Source of the DNA: Candidatus Electrothrix communis
Lineage (GTDB): Bacteria > Desulfobacterota > Desulfobulbia > Desulfobulbales > Desulfobulbaceae
Length of the DNA stretch: 64,000 nt
Assembly (NCBI GenBank): GCA_030644725.1
Contig: CP130629.1
Span: 861,572-925,571, forward strand
Direction: 5' to 3'
Position numbers and translations under genes: made by a program. Under the pieces are notes generated by a model, which was not told where the DNA came from, ran no database searches, and saw nothing but the letters and a program-made list of their open reading frames with translations. Of the stretch, positions 9,087 to 32,817 are shown in pieces (position 1 is the first letter of the stretch; each line of letters starts with the position of its first letter).

Positions 9087-10601
9087 GTAACTTCTCAATA
9101 AGTGCTGGTGGTCATTTTGAGGCTCAAAAAGTCAGAGCATTAACCGTCTGATTGTGTATATTATCTGAATATGAAGACAACCTTAGATCAAATCAAGCAG
9201 AATCTTCCAGATTCAGACAAGCAAAGCCCCAGTGTATCCATTCTGCTGGAATTGCTTGAGCAACATATTGCAACAATCACTCTCCAGAAAGAGCAAATTC
9301 AGGAACTCAAAGATGAAATTGCTCGGTTGAAAAAGCAGGCTACCAACTTAAGCCGGGACAGAAAGTAAATTCAAAGGGTTACTCTTGACATGTTTTCTCG
9401 GCTTACGAGGCAGGGGCAACTCGCCCACTTGGTGCAGCAACCATTCAAATAAGTCCGGTGGCTTTTCACCAAACAATCGTTGCGCTGCTGTACTGCCATC
9501 TGAGCGTTTTGTGAAATAATTATGCATAACGGTAAGCGATTTGAGACGATTTGAATTCAATCCTCTATTATTATGATGAATTTGTAACAAGAATCCGTTA
9601 CGTCCTTCGACAGCAGAGGAAGCTCGATGAAATTTTCCCACCATTTCCTCGGCCCAATTTTGCCAAAAGAAAATCTCATCCTCGCTAAATGTTCCAGTCA
9701 AGGCATGCGCCTGAAAGACGACCAAAGCTTTTTCCCATACTTTTTCATATTCTTTTCGAAGGGTTGGGTTCTTAGTTTTTCTTGCCTGATTGTACCAATA
9801 CACCGTAGGCAAAAGATGGTACATTGCCCAATCCAGCAGTTCCTTGCTCCTCTTTCCCAGCCCTATCAGGTTAGTGAACACATACAACCACCAAAAATCA
9901 ATTGATGGGACCAATTCTTTTATTTGATTCTTAAATTTCTTCATAACGCCGGTATTGTCGTTAATACCTTGTTTGCAGGCCAGCGTTTCAATATTCTTGG
10001 CTTGCTCTCGCAGCTCTTTTGCAACGTTTGCAGAATCTTGCGGTTTATTGTCGTCCAGTTTGAACGGATGCACCGTTTTTGATATTTTCCTTATTGTTCC
10101 AAGGTAGTTATCCAGATCTTGCGTGGCTTTTTGGTCTTGAGCCCGTGCTTCTTCGACCTGCTTCACTTTGGAGGCCACAATTTTTTTGTTTGCTCCTCTT
10201 TTTCAGCTTTTTCAAGACTTGACTCGCACTTATCCAACTGTCTTTTCGTCGTGCTCTTACGGCGGCCTAAAGTTGAGCCCATCCATTTACTGATATCGTG
10301 CAAGCCGTGAAAAATATCAGCGTTGTGATCACATTTAAGCCCGACCACAGCCAACTTTATTAACGCTTTAGCTCGATCAGATACCATCAGCTGAACGTGT
10401 ACACCTAACTCCTCAAGGCGTGGTTCCAACTATTTTAAACCAGGTATCAAAACTTGGGTACCAACTTAAGCCGGGACAAAATGAACCTCGTCCCAAAAAA
10501 TCATAACCTGAAATATCGTTTTTGATTGCCAGAAGTCTATGAAAAATAAGTTTATTGAAAAAATACTTTAACTGCTCGTAAAAAAATAGCATATTTCCGT
10601 T

Positions 10602-11413
10602 ATGAAAGCATTAACGGAAAAAATACGATCTATCGGTGGCAGAGTTTTTGCGGCTCTGGGGAAGTCAGACAAGCTTACCTACGAACAACTGGCAAAAGAA
10701 GCGAATACAAGCAAAAGTAGTGCGTTTCGACAAGTTAAAGGAATTCAAAGAAGAAATATCTATCCCGAATCTGTTTTGTGGGAACATGAAGAGGGGTATG
10801 AGTGGATTCGCAGGCATTTTTTTGCCACCTTGTTGATATTCGGTGTGCAACATGGAATAGGAGCGGACACCCTTTCCGAATATTTCAAGGTGCTTCGACT
10901 CGACACGCATATCGGGGTATCACCCACGCCTATACGAACCAGACTCTCTCAGCTTCAGGATGCAATTATCAGGTTTCAAAAGAAGTTGAACAAAATTATA
11001 AAGATGTATTCAAAGAGGTGATCGGTGCGGCGGACGAAACATTTTTCTGCAATGCACTCATTCTGGTATTTATGGACCTGTCATCGGGTTATTTAATTTT
11101 AGAGGATGTCGCTGATGACAGAAGTTTTGATACCTGGTTTAAAATGTTGGAACCACGCCTTGAGGAGTTAGGTGTACACGTTCAGCTGATGGTATCTGAT
11201 CGAGCTAAAGCGTTAATAAAGTTGGCTGTGGTCGGGCTTAAATGTGATCACAACGCTGATATTTTTCACGGCTTGCACGATATCAGTAAATGGATGGGCT
11301 CAACTTTAGGCCGCCGTAAGAGCACGACGAAAAGACAGTTGGATAAGTGCGAGTCAAGTCTTGAAAAAGCTGAAAAAGAGGAGCAAACAAAAAAATTGTG
11401 GCCTCCAAAGTGA
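10602..11413 (+). pseudogene. DUF6399 IS orf1 (copy B), one-base deletion
   Basis: Encodes MKALTEKIRSIGG..., an N-terminal helix-turn-helix-like segment (LTYEQLAKEANTSKSSAFRQVKG) followed by the first DDE acidic residues (GAADETFF, MVSDRAKAL). Against the intact orf1 at 29617-30429, the run before GAAGTTGAAC near 10980 has four A instead of five, which shifts the frame. Otherwise almost identical. Orf1 would end at ...KLWPPK and overlap orf2. Confidence 0.8.
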
Positions 11414-12228
11414 AGCAGGTCGAAGAAGCACGGGCTCAAGACCAAAAAGCCACGCAAGATCTGGATAACTACCGTGGAACAATAAGGAAAATATCAAAAA
11501 CGGTGCATCCGTTCAAACTGGACGACAATAAACCGCAAGATTCTGCAAACGTTGCAAAAGAGCTGCGAGAGCAAGCCAAGAATATTGAAACGCTGGCCTG
11601 CAAACAAGGTATTAACGACAATACCGGCGTTATGAAGAAATTTAAGAATCAAATAAAAGAATTGGTCCCATCAATTGATTTTTGGTGGTTGTATGTGTTC
11701 ACTAACCTGATAGGGCTGGGAAAGAGGAGCAAGGAACTGCTGGATTGGGCAATGTACCATCTTTTGCCTACGGTGTATTGGTACAATCAGGCAAGAAAAA
11801 CTAAGAACCCAACCCTTCGAAAAGAATATGAAAAAGTATGGGAAAAAGCTTTGGTCGTCTTTCAGGCGCATGCCTTGACTGGAACATTTAGCGAGGATGA
11901 GATTTTCTTTTGGCAAAATTGGGCTGAGGAAATGGTGGGAAAATTTCATCGAGCTTCCTCTGCTGTCGAAGGACGTAACGGATTCTTGTCACAAATTCAT
12001 CATAATAATAGAGGATTGAATTCAAATCGTCTCAAATCGCTTACCGTTATGCATAATTATTTCACAAAACGCTCAGATGGCAGTACAGCAGCGCAACGAT
12101 TGTTTGGTGAAAAGCCACCGGACTTATTTGAATGGTTGCTGCACCAAGTGGGCGAGTTGCCCCTGCCTCGTAAGCCGAGAAAACATGTCAAGAGTAACCC
12201 TTTGAATTTACTTTCTGTCCCGGCTTAA
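11398..12228 (+). CDS. DUF6399 IS orf2 (copy B), transposase C-terminal half
   Basis: 276 residues in the -1 frame relative to orf1, continuing the same protein: a coiled-coil linker (VKQVEEARAQDQKATQDL), a WWLYVFTN region, then the DUF6399-like end with the third acidic residue in SSAVEGRNGFLSQIHHN and HNYFTKRSDGSTAAQRLFGEKPPDLFEWLL. It has no convincing own ribosome site. It most likely is made as a fusion by slippage on CAAACAAAAAAATTG, where A AAA AAA is in register with orf1. Confidence 0.75.
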   Translation: MASKVKQVEEARAQDQKATQDLDNYRGTIRKISKTVHPFKLDDNKPQDSANVAKELREQAKNIETLACKQGINDNTGVMKKFKNQIKELVPSIDFWWLYVFTNLIGLGKRSKELLDWAMYHLLPTVYWYNQARKTKNPTLRKEYEKVWEKALVVFQAHALTGTFSEDEIFFWQNWAEEMVGKFHRASSAVEGRNGFLSQIHHNNRGLNSNRLKSLTVMHNYFTKRSDGSTAAQRLFGEKPPDLFEWLLHQVGELPLPRKPRKHVKSNPLNLLSVPA

Positions 12229-13050
12229 GTTGGTAGCCCAAAACTTCTGTCATCAGCGACATCCTCTAAAATTAAATAACCCGATGACAGGTCCATAAAT
12301 ACCAGAATGAGTGCATTGCAGAAAAATGTTTCGTCCGCCGCACCGATCACCTCTTTGAATACATCTTTATAATTTTGTTCAACTTCTTTTTGAAACCTGA
12401 TAATTGCATCCTGAAGCTGAGAGAGTCTGGTTCGTATAGGCGTGGGTGATACCCCGATATGCGTGTCGAGTCGAAGCACCTTGAAATATTCGGAAAGGGT
12501 GTCCGCTCCTATTCCATGTTGCACACCGAATATCAACAAGGTGGCAAAAAATGCCTGCGAATCCACTCATACCCCTCTTCATGTTCCCACAAAACAGATT
12601 CGGGATAGATATTTCTTCTTTGAATTCCTTTAACTTGTCGAAACGCACTACTTTTGCTTGTATTCGCTTCTTTTGCCAGTTGTTCGTAGGTAAGCTTGTC
12701 TGACTTCCCCAGAGCCGCAAAAACTCTGCCACCGATAGATCGTATTTTTTCCGTTAATGCTTTCATAACGGAAATATGCTATTTTTTTACGAGCAGTTAA
12801 AGTATTTTTTCAATAAACTTATTTTTCATAGACTTCTGGCAATCAAAAACGATATTTCAGGTTATGATTTTTTGGGACGAGGTTCATTTTGTCCCGGCTT
12901 AAGTTGGTACCCAAAAAGCAAAAGCCAAAACCGAAAATATCCCCCAGCAATCTGTCCCAAAAAGGTGAAAAAAAGAAGAATGGCAAGCGTCCAGGCTCGG
13001 CCAAAAAACAAAAAACAGCGAATCTGGAGATACACAAAACGAATAAGGTT

Positions 13051-22130: not shown

Positions 22131-23107
22131 AAATAAAGATCTGTCCGGGATACGGAACTGAAAATCGGGGTGAATTCCCGGAAAACGTCGAAAGGGGTGT
22201 TCGATACGGCACAGGGGTAAAGACATGGGCCGCGTATTTCGGAAATCAGCACCATATTCCGCTTGAACGCACCGCACAGATTATTGAAGACCTGACCCGG
22301 GCACGGAATTTCCGAGGGTTCGCTGCTCAAGGCGTCCGAAGAGCTTTCCGAGTGCGTTCGGCCCTCGACCGAGGCAACTGCGGAGCTTCTCCGTAATGCC
22401 GAGGTTCTGAATGCGGACGAAACCGGACTGCGGGTCAAAGGAAAACTCGGGCTTGGTTCTAAGTTCGGCCAATTGATTTACGCTTGGCACTCTCAATAAA
22501 AAAGATCATTAAATCTAAATTGTTATCATGCAGGTGCAGATTGTACTGGCAAGATGGCCGAAGTTAGAACCAAGCCCGAAAACTCCATTGGCTGCATGTC
22601 GCTTCATCGGACCTGCTCACTAATTATAACGTGCATGAAAAGCGCGGAAAAGAAGCGATGGATGCAGCCGGAATCCTCAGCGAATTCGAAGGCAAGATGG
22701 TGCATGATCACTTGAAATCGTACTTTGGATATAAAAATTGCCGTCATGGGCTATGCAACGCGCACCACCTTCGTGAGCTTGAATTCATAGGCAAGCAGTA
22801 TGAACAGGCATAGGCCGGAGACATGGCCGACCTGCTGCTTGAGATAAAAGAGGCGGTCGAAAAACTGAAGCCGGACCGGGACAGTTTTGGCTCGGAAGAT
22901 ATCGAAAGTTTCGAGCGAAGGTACGATGAAATAGTCTGCCGGGGCTTCGCGGACAATCCCTTCACTCCGCCGAAAGAGAAAAAAAGAGGCCGGGTGAAGA
23001 AAACCCCGCCGCTCAACCTTCTAACAAGGCTTCGGGATTACAAAGCGGAGACCCTCGCCTTCATGTACGATTTCCGGGTGCCGTTTGATAACAACGCAGC
23101 GGAAAGA
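22131..23107 (+). pseudogene. IS66 transposase, central part, decayed
   Basis: Homologous to the IS66 transposase at 25171-26325. Readable pieces in changing frames: GVRYGTGVKTWAAYFGNQHHIPLERTAQ-like, ADETGLRVKG, KMVHDHLKSYF with the second catalytic Asp, CNAHHLRELEFIGKQYEQA followed by a TAG, then LKPDRDSFGSEDIESFERRYDEIV and DNNAAERD. The 5' end is lost and the 3' end stops at AGAGATG where IS1182 starts (23108). It is interrupted by a MITE. Unlike the 25-kb copy it keeps the middle catalytic region. Its missing 3' end matches 7929-8177. Confidence 0.8.
22449..22577. mobile_element. MITE type 1, complete, 129 bp
   Basis: Inverted ends GGGCTTGGTTCTAAGTTCGG and its near-complement CCGAAGTTAGAACCAAGCCC. 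An exact 8-bp duplication GAAAACTC flanks it (22441-22448 and 22578-22585). Removing MITE plus one duplication restores IS66 coding sequence. No coding capacity. The same terminus ends the DUF6399-relative element at 33011, which suggests that element's transposase moved it. Confidence 0.92.
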
Positions 23108-28896: not shown

Positions 28897-29470
28897 GGCT
28901 ACCAACTTAAGCCGGGACAGAAAGTAAATTCAAAGGGTTACTCTTGACATGTTTTCTCGGCTTACGAGGCAGGGGCAACTCGCCCACTTGGTGCAGCAAC
29001 CATTCAAATAAGTCCGGTGGCTTTTCACCAAACAATCGTTGCGCTGCTGTACTGCCATCTGAGCGTTTTGTGAAATAATTATGCATAACGGTAAGCGATT
29101 TGAGACGATTTGAATTCAATCCTCTATTATTATGATGAATTTGTGACAAGAATCCGTTACGTCCTTCGACAGCAGAGGAAGCTCGATGAAATTTTCCCAC
29201 CATTTCCTCGGCCCAATTTTGCCAAAAGAAAATCTCATCCTCGCTAAATGTTCCAGTCAAGGCATGCGCCTGAAAGACGACCAAAGCTTTTTCCCATACT
29301 TTTTCATATTCTTTTCGAAGGGTTGGGTTCTTAGTTTTTCATGCCTGATTGTACCAATACACCGTAGGCAAAAGATGGTACATTGCCCAATCCAGCAGTT
29401 CCTTGCTCCTCTTTCCCAGCCCTATCAGGTTAGTGAACACATACAACCACCAAAAATCAATTGATGGGAC
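28897..29470 (-). mobile_element. DUF6399-type IS, copy C, 3' fragment
   Basis: Right terminus GGCTACCAACTTAAGCC at 28897, encoding the last 125 residues of orf2 on the minus strand. An A-to-T change turns AGA into TGA near 29341 (QARKT to QA-stop), so it is dead. It is cut at 29470 by copy D. No flank duplication is recoverable. Confidence 0.88.
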
Positions 29471-29616
29471 GGGTACCAACTTAAGCCGGGACAAAATGAA
29501 CCTCGTCCCAAAAAATCATAACCTGAAATATCGTTTTTGATTGCCAGAAGTCTATGAAAAATAAGTTTATTGAAAAAATACTTTAACTGCTCGTAAAAAA
29601 ATAGCATATTTCCGTT

Positions 29617-30429
29617 ATGAAAGCATTAACGGAAAAAATACGATCTATCGGTGGCAGAGTTTTTGCGGCTCTGGGGAAGTCAGACAAGCTTACCTACGAA
29701 CAACTGGCAAAAGAAGCGAATACAAGCAAAAGTAGTGCGTTTCGACAAGTTAAAGGAATTCAAAGAAGAAATATCTATCCCGAATCTGTTTTGTGGGAAC
29801 ATGAAGAGGGGTATGAGTGGATTCGCAGGCATTTTTTTGCCACCTTGTTGATATTCGGTGTGCAACATGGAATAGGAGCGGACACCCTTTCCGAATATTT
29901 CAAGGTGCTTCGACTCGACACGCATATCGGGGTATCACCCACGCCTATACGAACCAGACTCTCTCAGCTTCAGGATGCAATTATCAGGTTTCAAAAAGAA
30001 GTTGAACAAAATTATAAAGATGTATTCAAAGAGGTGATCGGTGCGGCGGACGAAACATTTTTCTGCAATGCACTCATTCTGGTATTTATGGACCTGTCAT
30101 CGGGTTATTTAATTTTAGAGGATGTCGCTGATGACAGAAGTTTTGATACCTGGTTTAAAATGTTGGAACCACGCCTTGAGGAGTTAGGTGTACACGTTCA
30201 GCTGATGGTATCTGATCGAGCTAAAGCGTTAATAAAGTTGGCTGTGGTCGGGCTTAAATGTGATCACAACGCTGATATTTTTCACGGCTTGCACGATATC
30301 AGTAAATGGATGAGCTCAACTTTAGGCCGCCGTAAGAGCACGACGAAAAGACAGTTGGATAAGTGCGAGTCAAGTCTTGAAAAAGCTGAAAAAGAGGAGC
30401 AAACAAAAAAATTGTGGCCTCCAAAGTGA
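29617..30429 (+). CDS. DUF6399 IS orf1 (copy D), intact
   Basis: 270 residues. A helix-turn-helix-like N-terminus (residues about 20-50, LTYEQLAKEANTSKSSAFRQ), a middle region, and the first two acidic catalytic candidates in GAADETFF and MVSDRAKALIKL. It ends ...EEQTKKLWPPK. The last 16 bases overlap the orf2 frame. The codons ACA AAA AAA TTG place A AAA AAA in the slippery register, and slipping back one base continues into IVASKVKQVEEA. The related single-frame protein at 31369-32817 shows what the fused product looks like. Confidence 0.85.
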   Translation: MKALTEKIRSIGGRVFAALGKSDKLTYEQLAKEANTSKSSAFRQVKGIQRRNIYPESVLWEHEEGYEWIRRHFFATLLIFGVQHGIGADTLSEYFKVLRLDTHIGVSPTPIRTRLSQLQDAIIRFQKEVEQNYKDVFKEVIGAADETFFCNALILVFMDLSSGYLILEDVADDRSFDTWFKMLEPRLEELGVHVQLMVSDRAKALIKLAVVGLKCDHNADIFHGLHDISKWMSSTLGRRKSTTKRQLDKCESSLEKAEKEEQTKKLWPPK

Positions 30430-31389
30430 AGCAGGTCGAAGAAGCACGGGCTCAAGACCAAAAAGCCACGCAAGATCTGGATAACTACCGTGGAACAATA
30501 AGGAAAATATCAAAAACGGTGCATCCGTTCAAACTGGACGACAATAAACCGCAAGATTCTGCAAACGTTGCAAAAGAGCTGCGAGAGCAAGCCAAGAATA
30601 TTGAAACGCTGGCCTGCAAAACAAGGGCTACCAGCTTAAGCCGGGACAAAAGTTCGGGTTCTGAAGTCTCCGAATTCGGCAAAAGCCCCCGCTATGAACA
30701 GTTTGCGACGGTTTACGCAATTGCCTGATTTTGCAAGCTGTCCCGCCTTAAGTTGGTAGCCCAAACAAGGTATTAACGACAATACCGGCGTTATGAAGAA
30801 ATTTAAGAATCAAATAAAAGAATTGGTCCCATCAATTGATTTTTGGTGGTTGTATGTGTTCACTAACCTGATAGGGCTGGGAAAGAGGAGCAAGGAACTG
30901 CTGGATTGGGCAATGTACCATCTTTTGCCTACGGTGTATTGGTACAATCAGGCAAGAAAAACTAAGAACCCAACCCTTCGAAAAGAATATGAAAAAGTAT
31001 GGGAAAAAGCTTTGGTCGTCTTTCAGGCGCATGCCTTGACTGGAACATTTAGCGCGGATGAGATTTTCTTTTGGCAAAATTGGGCCGAGGAAATGGTGGG
31101 AAAATTTCATCGAGCTTCCTCTGCTGTCGAAGGACGTAACGGATTCTTGTCACAAATTCATCATAATAATAGAGGATTGAATTCAAATCGTCTCAAATCG
31201 CTTACCGTTATGCATAATTATTTCACAAAACGCTCAGATGGCAGTACAGCAGCGCAACGATTGTTTGGTGAAAAGCCACCGGACTTATTTGAATGGTTGC
31301 TGCACCAAGTGGGCGAGTTGCCCCTGCCTCGTAAGCCGAGAAAACATGTCAAGAGTAACCCTTTGAATTTACTTTCTGTCCCGGCTTAA
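30414..31389 (+). pseudogene. DUF6399 IS orf2 (copy D), interrupted by a MITE
   Basis: Begins VASKVKQVEEARAQDQ and reads to ETLACK, where the MITE at 30626-30761 enters. It resumes at NTGVMKKFKNQIKELVPSIDFWW and runs to SVPA. One residue in the TFSEDEIFF region is changed to Ala (TFSADEIFF). With the MITE removed the frame would also need one extra A in the left duplication corrected. Confidence 0.85.
30626..30761. mobile_element. MITE type 2, 136 bp, with DUF6399 IS ends
   Basis: Ends GGCTACCAGCTTAAGCCGGG and TCCCGCCTTAAGTTGGTAGCC-like inverted repeats, each within 1-2 bases of the host IS ends. Flanked by CAAAACAAG (30617-30625) and CAAACAAG (30762-30769), an 8-bp duplication with one A added. 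The interior has no similarity to the IS coding region that I can see. Confidence 0.9.
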
Positions 31390-32817
31390 GTTGGTAGCCT
31401 TTCTTGGGTTAGCACTTTGTATCAGTGATTCCGTTTTTTCCGGATTGATCCCTGATATAAACCCGTTGTGTTGATTGATAATTGAAAGTAGTTTGGCTGA
31501 TTGCTGTTGAATCAGCTCCCTTCTGACCTTATCCTTTTCTTTTTCCGCAACGAAAGAGAGATAGAAACCGGGAATCAGTCGATCCTTCAGTAGTATTTCT
31601 TCTTCACCGGAAAAATTCATATTTTCGAGATATTGATCCACCATTGTCCAAAAGAAGGCTATGGTGGAAACTAAATTGGCCACAACCTTATACGCTTTTT
31701 CAACACGATTGCGGCATTTCCCGGAAAGATCGGCTGCCGCTTTATTTATTTCGGAAAAGCAGGAGTCTAGGAGGCTCTCCACCGTAGAAGGATCCTGCCT
31801 TTCTCCTGTTGTGGGATCATAGGGGTGATAAATATGCCCGATCCTCTTTCTCGCCGCACGGATGGTTTCCTGGTTTTCACGAGCTTTCAGCAGTTCCGCC
31901 TCCGCACTTTCTCTTTGTTTTTCAGCAAGGTTAACCTTTTTTTCAAAACCCGGTCTCCTGCCTCTCGGGCGACGCTCCCGTGAATCGTAACGATGCATTT
32001 CTTCTTTTATTTTATCTACTTGCTTCCCTGACGATTGAAAAGCTTTTTCCGCTCTTCTGATCTTCGAAGCAAGCGGCCCGGAAGTCCCTTTTCCTATATC
32101 GTGAGATACATGAAAAATATCCGACGAATGATGAACCCCGAGCCTTTTTTTAACATGATTCAGTAAGCCGCTGCCTTGATCACTGGTAACCTGAATCACC
32201 TTGACCGGTAGGCTGGAAAGTGCATCTTTAACTGATGTGTCCCAAGTTTCCCCCTTTCTGTTTTCGGCGTATTTTTCCAAAAGTATATAGTTTGACACCG
32301 GTTCCATAGCAACAAGGCATATCTCTGGATGGAAAGTTTCATCTTCCGCCAAGGTGATTGCCTTTGGCGGCATTTGAGTCGCGAGGCGATCATGTTCAGA
32401 CTTGCCAAATCGTATCAACTCATTATCCATTTTGTTTGAGATTCTACGCTGAGTTGCATATGAACTTCCGATAAACGGAGCAAGTCCGCACGCTTTAAGG
32501 AAATTACTGACATTGTGAATGCTTGCCACCCCAACCTTGGTAAATTCTAAATGAGCGACGGTTACCAGTCTGTGCAAAAAAGCCACCCCGTCCGGGCTTT
32601 CAAAGAAATCAATGAGAGCCGGAGAGGCATCAATATTCTCTTTACGTTTGAGCCAATATTGAAGCGTAGTTCTTGGAATCTTTTCCTTTTGGGCAAACTG
32701 CCGTTGACTTTGTCGACCTCTTTCCTCTTCAAATTCACATATCTTTATCGAGGAATGAAGCCGGTTGTGATTATTTCCTCTTACTTTATCTGGAGAAATT
32801 TGATATTGTGTGGTCAT
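31369..32817 (-). CDS. DUF6399-related transposase, single frame, C-terminus truncated
   Basis: 482 residues in one frame from MTTQYQISPDKVRGN. It aligns with fused orf1+orf2 of the other copies: AEDETFHPE (first acidic site), QVTSDQGSGLLNHVKKRLGVHHSSDIFHVSHDIGKG (second), then a long coiled coil (EKKVNLAEKQRESAEAELLKARENQE) where the others have their frame switch, and IAFFWTMVDQY for the WWLYVFTN region. The last nine residues (ATNLSRDRK) come from the end of copy D at 31399, so the DUF6399 C-terminus with the third catalytic residue is missing. Confidence 0.8.
   Translation of the reverse strand: MTTQYQISPDKVRGNNHNRLHSSIKICEFEEERGRQSQRQFAQKEKIPRTTLQYWLKRKENIDASPALIDFFESPDGVAFLHRLVTVAHLEFTKVGVASIHNVSNFLKACGLAPFIGSSYATQRRISNKMDNELIRFGKSEHDRLATQMPPKAITLAEDETFHPEICLVAMEPVSNYILLEKYAENRKGETWDTSVKDALSSLPVKVIQVTSDQGSGLLNHVKKRLGVHHSSDIFHVSHDIGKGTSGPLASKIRRAEKAFQSSGKQVDKIKEEMHRYDSRERRPRGRRPGFEKKVNLAEKQRESAEAELLKARENQETIRAARKRIGHIYHPYDPTTGERQDPSTVESLLDSCFSEINKAAADLSGKCRNRVEKAYKVVANLVSTIAFFWTMVDQYLENMNFSGEEEILLKDRLIPGFYLSFVAEKEKDKVRRELIQQQSAKLLSIINQHNGFISGINPEKTESLIQSANPRKATNLSRDRK

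What the first reader, a model, noticed from the sequence alone, without database searches (positions are those of the whole stretch)
30626..30761. MITE type 2 inserted in a DUF6399 IS that has the same ends
A 136-bp non-coding element carries near-copies of the DUF6399 IS termini, with an 8-bp duplication CAAACAAG (one A added on the left). It disables orf2 of copy D, the very transposase likely to move it. Together with type 1 this shows that each DUF6399 subfamily has spawned its own MITE.
Basis: partly seen in the sequence, partly recalled or inferred. Interest (0 to 1): 0.6.

Follow-up and report, generated by a model that had tools for sequence, protein, structure and literature searches.

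The report
Miniature transposon inside its helper transposon
A 136-base DNA parasite without genes, found in cable bacteria (Candidatus Electrothrix), carries the end signals of a larger jumping element and has landed inside a copy of that element's own transposase gene; it is a well-supported new example of a familiar kind of mobile DNA.

Summary
Confirmed. Window 30626-30761 is a 136-bp miniature inverted-repeat element inside orf2 of a 1783-bp DUF6399 insertion sequence (copy D, 29471-31399). About a dozen uninterrupted IS copies elsewhere in the genome preserve the empty site, with CAAACAAG once. The family is real and mobile: three 100%-identical copies sit at unrelated sites of this genome, and 26 distinct full-length insertions occur in 7 of 8 genomes of the genus (identified as the cable bacteria Ca. 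Electrothrix). Twelve have 8-bp target duplications matching at >=7/8 (eight exact; null 0); two further empty sites were found. The IS also makes 8-bp duplications. The interior is not an internal deletion of the resident IS, so this is a type II MITE. Its right end shares a subterminal box, G(C/T)A(A/T)3TCA at a fixed offset, with DUF6399 IS right ends and with unrelated-interior MITEs of sister genera, so descent from that IS lineage is likely; the immediate parent was not found. Mobilisation in trans by the DUF6399 transposase is the best explanation (inferred). 'One MITE per DUF6399 subfamily' is partly supported: the type-1 MITE is multicopy and matches the neighbouring type-1 IS end. 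A new member of a known kind.

The parts
30626..30761 (+). MITE (136 bp, no gene of its own), orientation with IS-left-like end (ACAAAA) at left and IS-right-like end (GGCGGGACAG, reading inward) at right
   Evidence: Inverted arms; 100% identical copies at two other loci of the genome and diverged ones elsewhere
30626..30648 (+). left terminal inverted repeat GGCTACCAGCTTAAGCCGGGACA
   Evidence: 95.7% identical to an IS end over 23 nt
30739..30761 (-). right terminal inverted repeat GGCTACCAACTTAAGGCGGGACA (read on - strand)
   Evidence: 95.8% identical to the IS right end over 24 nt
30726..30734 (-). right subterminal box GCAAAATCA (read on - strand), 4 nt inside the right repeat; consensus G[CT]A[AT]3TCA
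   Evidence: Same offset in IS right ends and in MITEs of three sister genera
30617..30625 (+). left copy of target duplication, CAAAACAAG (one A more than the target)
   Evidence: empty site CAAACAAG in intact IS copies
30762..30769 (+). right copy of target duplication, CAAACAAG
29471..31399 (+). host element: DUF6399 IS copy D (1783-bp type, here 1929 bp with the MITE), GGGTACC...GGTAGCC
   Evidence: DUF6399 PF19936 E=2.9e-59 in orf2
29617..30429 (+). orf1 of copy D: N-terminal transposase part with the first two presumed acidic residues (ADE, SDR)
   Evidence: weak IS256_Zn_var hit E=3.5e-4
30414..30728 (+). orf2 frame upstream of and running into the MITE, stopped inside it
30793..31389 (+). 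rest of orf2 with the DUF6399 domain (VEGRN, presumed third acidic residue), cut off from its start by the MITE
22448..22580 (.). type-1 MITE, comparison element, with ends of the type-1 DUF6399-like IS

Best explanation
The element is a non-autonomous type II MITE that is (or was until recently) moved in trans by the transposase of the co-resident DUF6399 insertion sequence. Proposed mechanism: the DDE-type, Mutator/IS256-like transposase binds the 23-bp inverted repeats, with help from a right-end subterminal box. It then joins the element to a staggered cut and 8 bp of A+T-rich target are duplicated. One such jump landed in orf2 of IS copy D and truncated that copy's transposase, so other copies must supply the enzyme. 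Shown here: the repeats, the 8-bp duplications, the empty sites, the multiple identical and diverged copies, the shared right-end box, and the disruption of orf2. Inferred: that this particular transposase performs the reaction, and that the MITE descends from an older member of the same IS lineage whose interior was replaced or lost.
For: Both ends match the IS ends at 95-96% over 23-24 nt. MITE and IS both make 8-bp duplications: MITEs 8 exact and 12 of 26 at >=7/8, with none in mismatched pairings; IS copies CAAAATAA, GACAAATC, CAAAACTT, A8 and TGCTTTTT. Empty sites: about a dozen IS copies for this insertion; 260/260 bp in G003 for copy 3538536; a contiguous 81% match in G005 for the G007 copy at 610565. 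The three 100%-identical MITEs occur in the one genome that also holds about 14 near-identical DUF6399 IS copies, while genus members with absent or relict IS have only diverged MITEs. One IS copy has a single 546-codon open frame. The right-end box at a fixed offset is shared between MITE and IS (p=0.0004; left end p=0.29-0.60) and held in a further element type examined afterwards.
Against: The right repeat differs from the resident IS at base 16 (G for C), and the GGCG form is shared with other genera's MITEs. A different, unseen or extinct relative may therefore have been the enzyme source for older copies. Most IS copies have frame differences at homopolymers, so the active enzyme supply is uncertain. 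No transposition was observed. The transposase has no close annotated family beyond DUF6399 and no solved relative.
Confidence: 0.8

Rival explanations
1. The MITE is a direct internal-deletion derivative of the resident DUF6399 IS (type I MITE).
For: Ends are 95-96% identical and left/right asymmetry (ACAAAA left, ACAG right) is kept.
Against: The 88-nt interior matches nothing in the IS (score 20, shuffle mean 19.5, 227 of 500 shuffles as good).
Confidence: 0.02
2. The MITE descends from, and is moved by, a different member of the DUF6399 IS lineage (with a GGCG right repeat) that is now lost from, or unsampled in, these genomes; the resident IS plays no part.
For: Right repeat base 16 is G in MITEs of Electrothrix, G010 and G088 but C in the ISs. 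Most genus members have MITEs but no intact DUF6399 IS. The right-end box shows lineage descent.
Against: The three 100%-identical copies require recent movement in a genome where the only DUF6399 ISs with matching ends are the resident ones.
Confidence: 0.15
3. Chance inverted repeat or a hairpin RNA/terminator gene, not a mobile element.
For: The strand folds well (z = -4.7 DNA, -5.3 RNA).
Against: The folding is mainly the inverted repeats themselves. No Rfam match. Target duplications, empty sites and 26 dispersed insertions show mobility.
Confidence: 0.01
4. Duplicated or mis-assembled copy of another locus placed in copy D by the assembly.
For: Single-contig assembly with homopolymer differences between IS copies; three MITE copies are identical.
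Against: Each identical copy has its own flanks and its own 8-bp duplication, which assembly error would not create.
Confidence: 0.02

Closest known systems
MITEAba12 of Acinetobacter with ISAba12 (PMC6382973)
   Same: Short element (113 bp) without a gene; identity to co-resident ISs confined to the terminal repeats; same duplication length as the IS; proposed mobilisation in trans; found across a bacterial family.
   Different: 9-bp duplications, 16-bp repeats and unrelated sequence; a transposition event was observed in the laboratory. Here movement is inferred from empty sites, and a right-end box outside the repeats is shared with the IS.
Type II prokaryotic MITEs in general (e.g. Chunjie of Geobacter, QMITE of Coxiella; reviewed in PMC10969869)
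   Same: <500 bp, terminal repeats within the usual size, duplications decaying with age, mostly intergenic.
   Different: New sequence family; IS partner is of the DUF6399 type, for which no paper was found in the library; one copy sits in the partner's transposase gene.
Prokaryotic Mutator-like (p-MULT) ISs: IS256, ISLre2, ISKra4/ISMich2 (PMC3942029), as relatives of the partner IS
   Same: DDE-type; a (C/D)xxH motif after the second D (here DIFH, 20 residues after it); ISMich2 also has a two-ORF transposase restorable by a -1 frameshift.
   Different: DUF6399 C-terminal domain; only a weak IS256-variant profile hit (E=3.5e-4); motif spacing one residue outside the published 11-19.

Membership tests
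MITE (type II) | Short (<500 bp), no transposase gene | tested here: met
   136 bp, no gene of its own; the overlapping host-frame ORFs only run into it
MITE (type II) | Terminal inverted repeats | tested here: met
   24-nt arms, 92% complementary
MITE (type II) | Target-site duplication of constant length | tested here: met
   8 bp; 12 of 26 insertions >=7/8, null 0
MITE (type II) | Multiple dispersed copies and empty sites | tested here: met
   26 insertions in 7 genomes; empty sites
MITE (type II) | Similarity to the autonomous partner confined to the ends | tested here: met
   Interior vs IS no better than shuffles; weak right-end extension of about 24 nt
MITE (type II) | Transposed in trans by the partner's transposase | not testable with these tools
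   Needs a transposition assay
Type I MITE (internal-deletion derivative of resident IS) | Interior derived from the IS | tested here: not met
Prokaryotic Mutator/IS256-like IS (partner element) | DDE catalytic triad with (C/D)xxH after D2 | tested here: inconclusive
   Candidate motifs ADE / SD / DIFH / VEGRN seen in alignment; no structure model made; no strong family hit
Prokaryotic Mutator/IS256-like IS (partner element) | 8-9 bp target duplications | tested here: met
   8 bp, five exact pairs; the 8-9 bp figure for this group is from my own knowledge

The most novel reading that the evidence does not exclude
DUF6399 transposases repeatedly mint MITEs of unrelated interior across the family (four genera seen), and these MITEs preferentially land in or next to the cognate IS, acting as a built-in brake. 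Besides copy D, a MITE abuts an IS relic in another Electrothrix (L148/L066) and a different MITE lies beside a truncated DUF6399 IS in G010. Neutral survival in dispensable DNA is the simpler reading.
Probability: 0.07. Interest if true: 0.5.

Novelty: new member of a known kind. Interest (0 to 1): 0.3.

Why it matters
It adds a documented MITE family, with recent mobility and empty sites, for cable bacteria, and ties a poorly described transposase group (DUF6399) to exact ends, an 8-bp duplication and a fixed subterminal right-end box. The same ends recur on MITEs with unrelated interiors in four genera of one family. This gives a small natural series for asking which end bases a transposase needs and how MITEs acquire new interiors.

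Tried and rejected
Internal deletion of the resident IS: rejected. Structured RNA: no Rfam hit, and the folding comes mainly from the repeats. Autonomous parent carrying the MITE interior: not found in 57 genomes searched with the MITE, nor among solo ends in the genus, which were truncated MITEs or IS relics. Wider spread: no match in phages or plasmids, no exact end motif in viral contigs. Within 258 genomes of the order the end motif occurs only in four genera of the home family. DUF6399 proteins on cyanobacterial plasmids (35-38% identity) gave no clear ends with >=7-bp duplications in a simple scan. PDB and Pfam searches gave no structural relative.

Full report
What was checked. The finding lies at 30626-30761. 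The element there is exactly 136 bp, bounded by inverted arms that the repeat finder reports as 30625-30648 and 30739-30762 (92% complementary). It is inserted in a DUF6399 insertion sequence, copy D, at 29471-31399. An intact copy of the same IS aligned to copy D differs by one inserted T, two substitutions and this insertion at IS position 1144. Uninterrupted copies elsewhere in the genome read CTGCAAACAAGGTATT at the site. The orf2 frame enters the element and stops at 30728, so copy D cannot make a full transposase.

The family. In the window's own genome (G000, 4,845,585 bp in one contig) there are three copies with 100% identity at unrelated sites, two full-length diverged copies and one truncated copy. 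In the 57 genomes searched, the whole element is found only in the same genus. After removing two orthologous pairs I hold 26 distinct full-length insertions in 7 of 8 genomes of the genus. One genus member, G007, is 5,089,909 bp long (contig length), exactly the length published for Candidatus Electrothrix scaldis GW3-3 (PMC10926707). A search for cable bacteria with 'miniature inverted-repeat' returned no paper in the held library.

Mobility. Comparing the 8 bases left and right of each insertion, 8 of 26 are identical and 12 of 26 agree at 7 or more positions. No pairing of the left flank of one insertion with the right flank of another does so, and no insertion has a longer exact repeat. 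The IS shows the same length: CAAAATAA, GACAAATC, AAAAAAAA, CAAAACTT and TGCTTTTT are exact. I joined the flanks of seven insertions and searched the genus. The target of copy 3538536 exists uninterrupted, 260 of 260 bases, in G003 (and at 90-97% in others). The target of the G007 copy at 610565 exists as one contiguous 81% match in G005. Together with the site in copy D, that makes three empty sites.

Relation to the IS. Ends match at 95-96% over 23-24 nt and keep the left/right difference of the IS. Beyond the repeats, the right ends of MITEs and ISs share a box G[CT]A[AT]3TCA beginning at the fifth base inside the repeat. For the Electrothrix MITE against the two ISs and two other MITE families the ungapped match gives p = 0.0004, while the left ends give p = 0.29-0.60. 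A further element type, in G013, was looked at afterwards. It has the box at the same place (GTAAATTCA) and an exact 8-bp duplication ATAAAATT. Over all ends held, the box is at that offset in 38 of 125 and elsewhere within 60 bp in 2 (copies are related, so this is descriptive). I read this as descent from the DUF6399 IS lineage. The box may be an additional binding site for the transposase or a host factor; that part is a guess.

Other genera. G010 (another genus of the family) has about 100 end motifs. The units read there are 145-251 bp MITEs with interiors unrelated to the Electrothrix one, several with exact 8-bp duplications; G088 has a 125-bp one with AAATGGGG on both sides. In 258 genomes of the order the end motif is found only in four genera of the home family.

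Who moves it. Recent movement (three identical copies) is seen in the genome that has about 14 near-identical DUF6399 ISs. Genus members with no or only relict DUF6399 IS carry diverged MITEs. This supports mobilisation by the resident transposase but rests on few genomes. IS copies differ in homopolymer length: T6/T7, A5/A6, constant A7. One copy, 5 kb from a MITE, has a single 546-codon frame. The others need a -1 shift, for which the A7 run would suit, or are assembly errors; some also carry the T6 variant that breaks the N-terminal part. The transposase has ADE, SD, DIFH and VEGRN motifs and a weak IS256-variant profile hit, consistent with the Mutator/IS256 group, but membership was not established.

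The wider claim. The neighbouring IS (transposase 31369-32817, minus strand; 24-26% identical to the D-type in the alignment) ends in CGGGCTTGGTTCTAAGTTCGGCCAATT, and so does a MITE at about 22448-22580 with about a dozen full-length relatives in this genome and more in the genus. 'Each subfamily has its own MITE' is therefore a fair description of this window, though the descent of each MITE from its IS is inferred.

Verdict. A real, mobile, type II MITE family with a DUF6399 IS partner. It is well supported, modestly interesting, and of a known kind (closest documented parallel: MITEAba12/ISAba12, PMC6382973).

Noticed in passing
window 9338-12912: A DUF6399 IS copy interrupted by a second copy (10456-12238): one 3575-bp unit with an exact 8-bp duplication TGCTTTTT, i.e. 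IS-in-IS insertion.
   Followed up: partly
window 28897-29470 and 29471: Copy D has no duplication of its own (GATGGGAC / TTTCTTGG); its left end abuts a 574-bp 3' fragment of another copy in inverted orientation, and its right end lies in the transposase gene of a type-1 IS. This suggests an adjacent deletion or inversion.
   Followed up: partly
G000 IS copies (e.g. L007-L016, L132, L133): IS copies differ almost only in homopolymer lengths (T6/T7, A5/A6), which split or fuse the transposase frame; A7 is constant. Either -1 slippage regulation or assembly error.
   Followed up: partly
window 22448-22580: Type-1 MITE inside an IS66-type copy; about a dozen full-length relatives (72-80%) in the same genome and more in the genus.
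   Followed up: partly
L148 / L066 (2896-3421 of L148): In another Electrothrix genome a diverged MITE directly follows the first 391 bp of a DUF6399 IS relic, without a duplication.
   Followed up: partly
L176-L187 (G010): A genome of a sister genus holds about 100 copies of the end motif; the units read are 145-251 bp MITEs whose interiors contain a separate hairpin-rich repeat (GTTCCCACGCTCC...GAGACTCCGTCT).
   Followed up: partly
G000:C1:3538405-3538808: The target of one identical MITE copy is itself a repeated sequence present at 90-100% identity in G001, G003 and G005; nature not identified.
   Followed up: no
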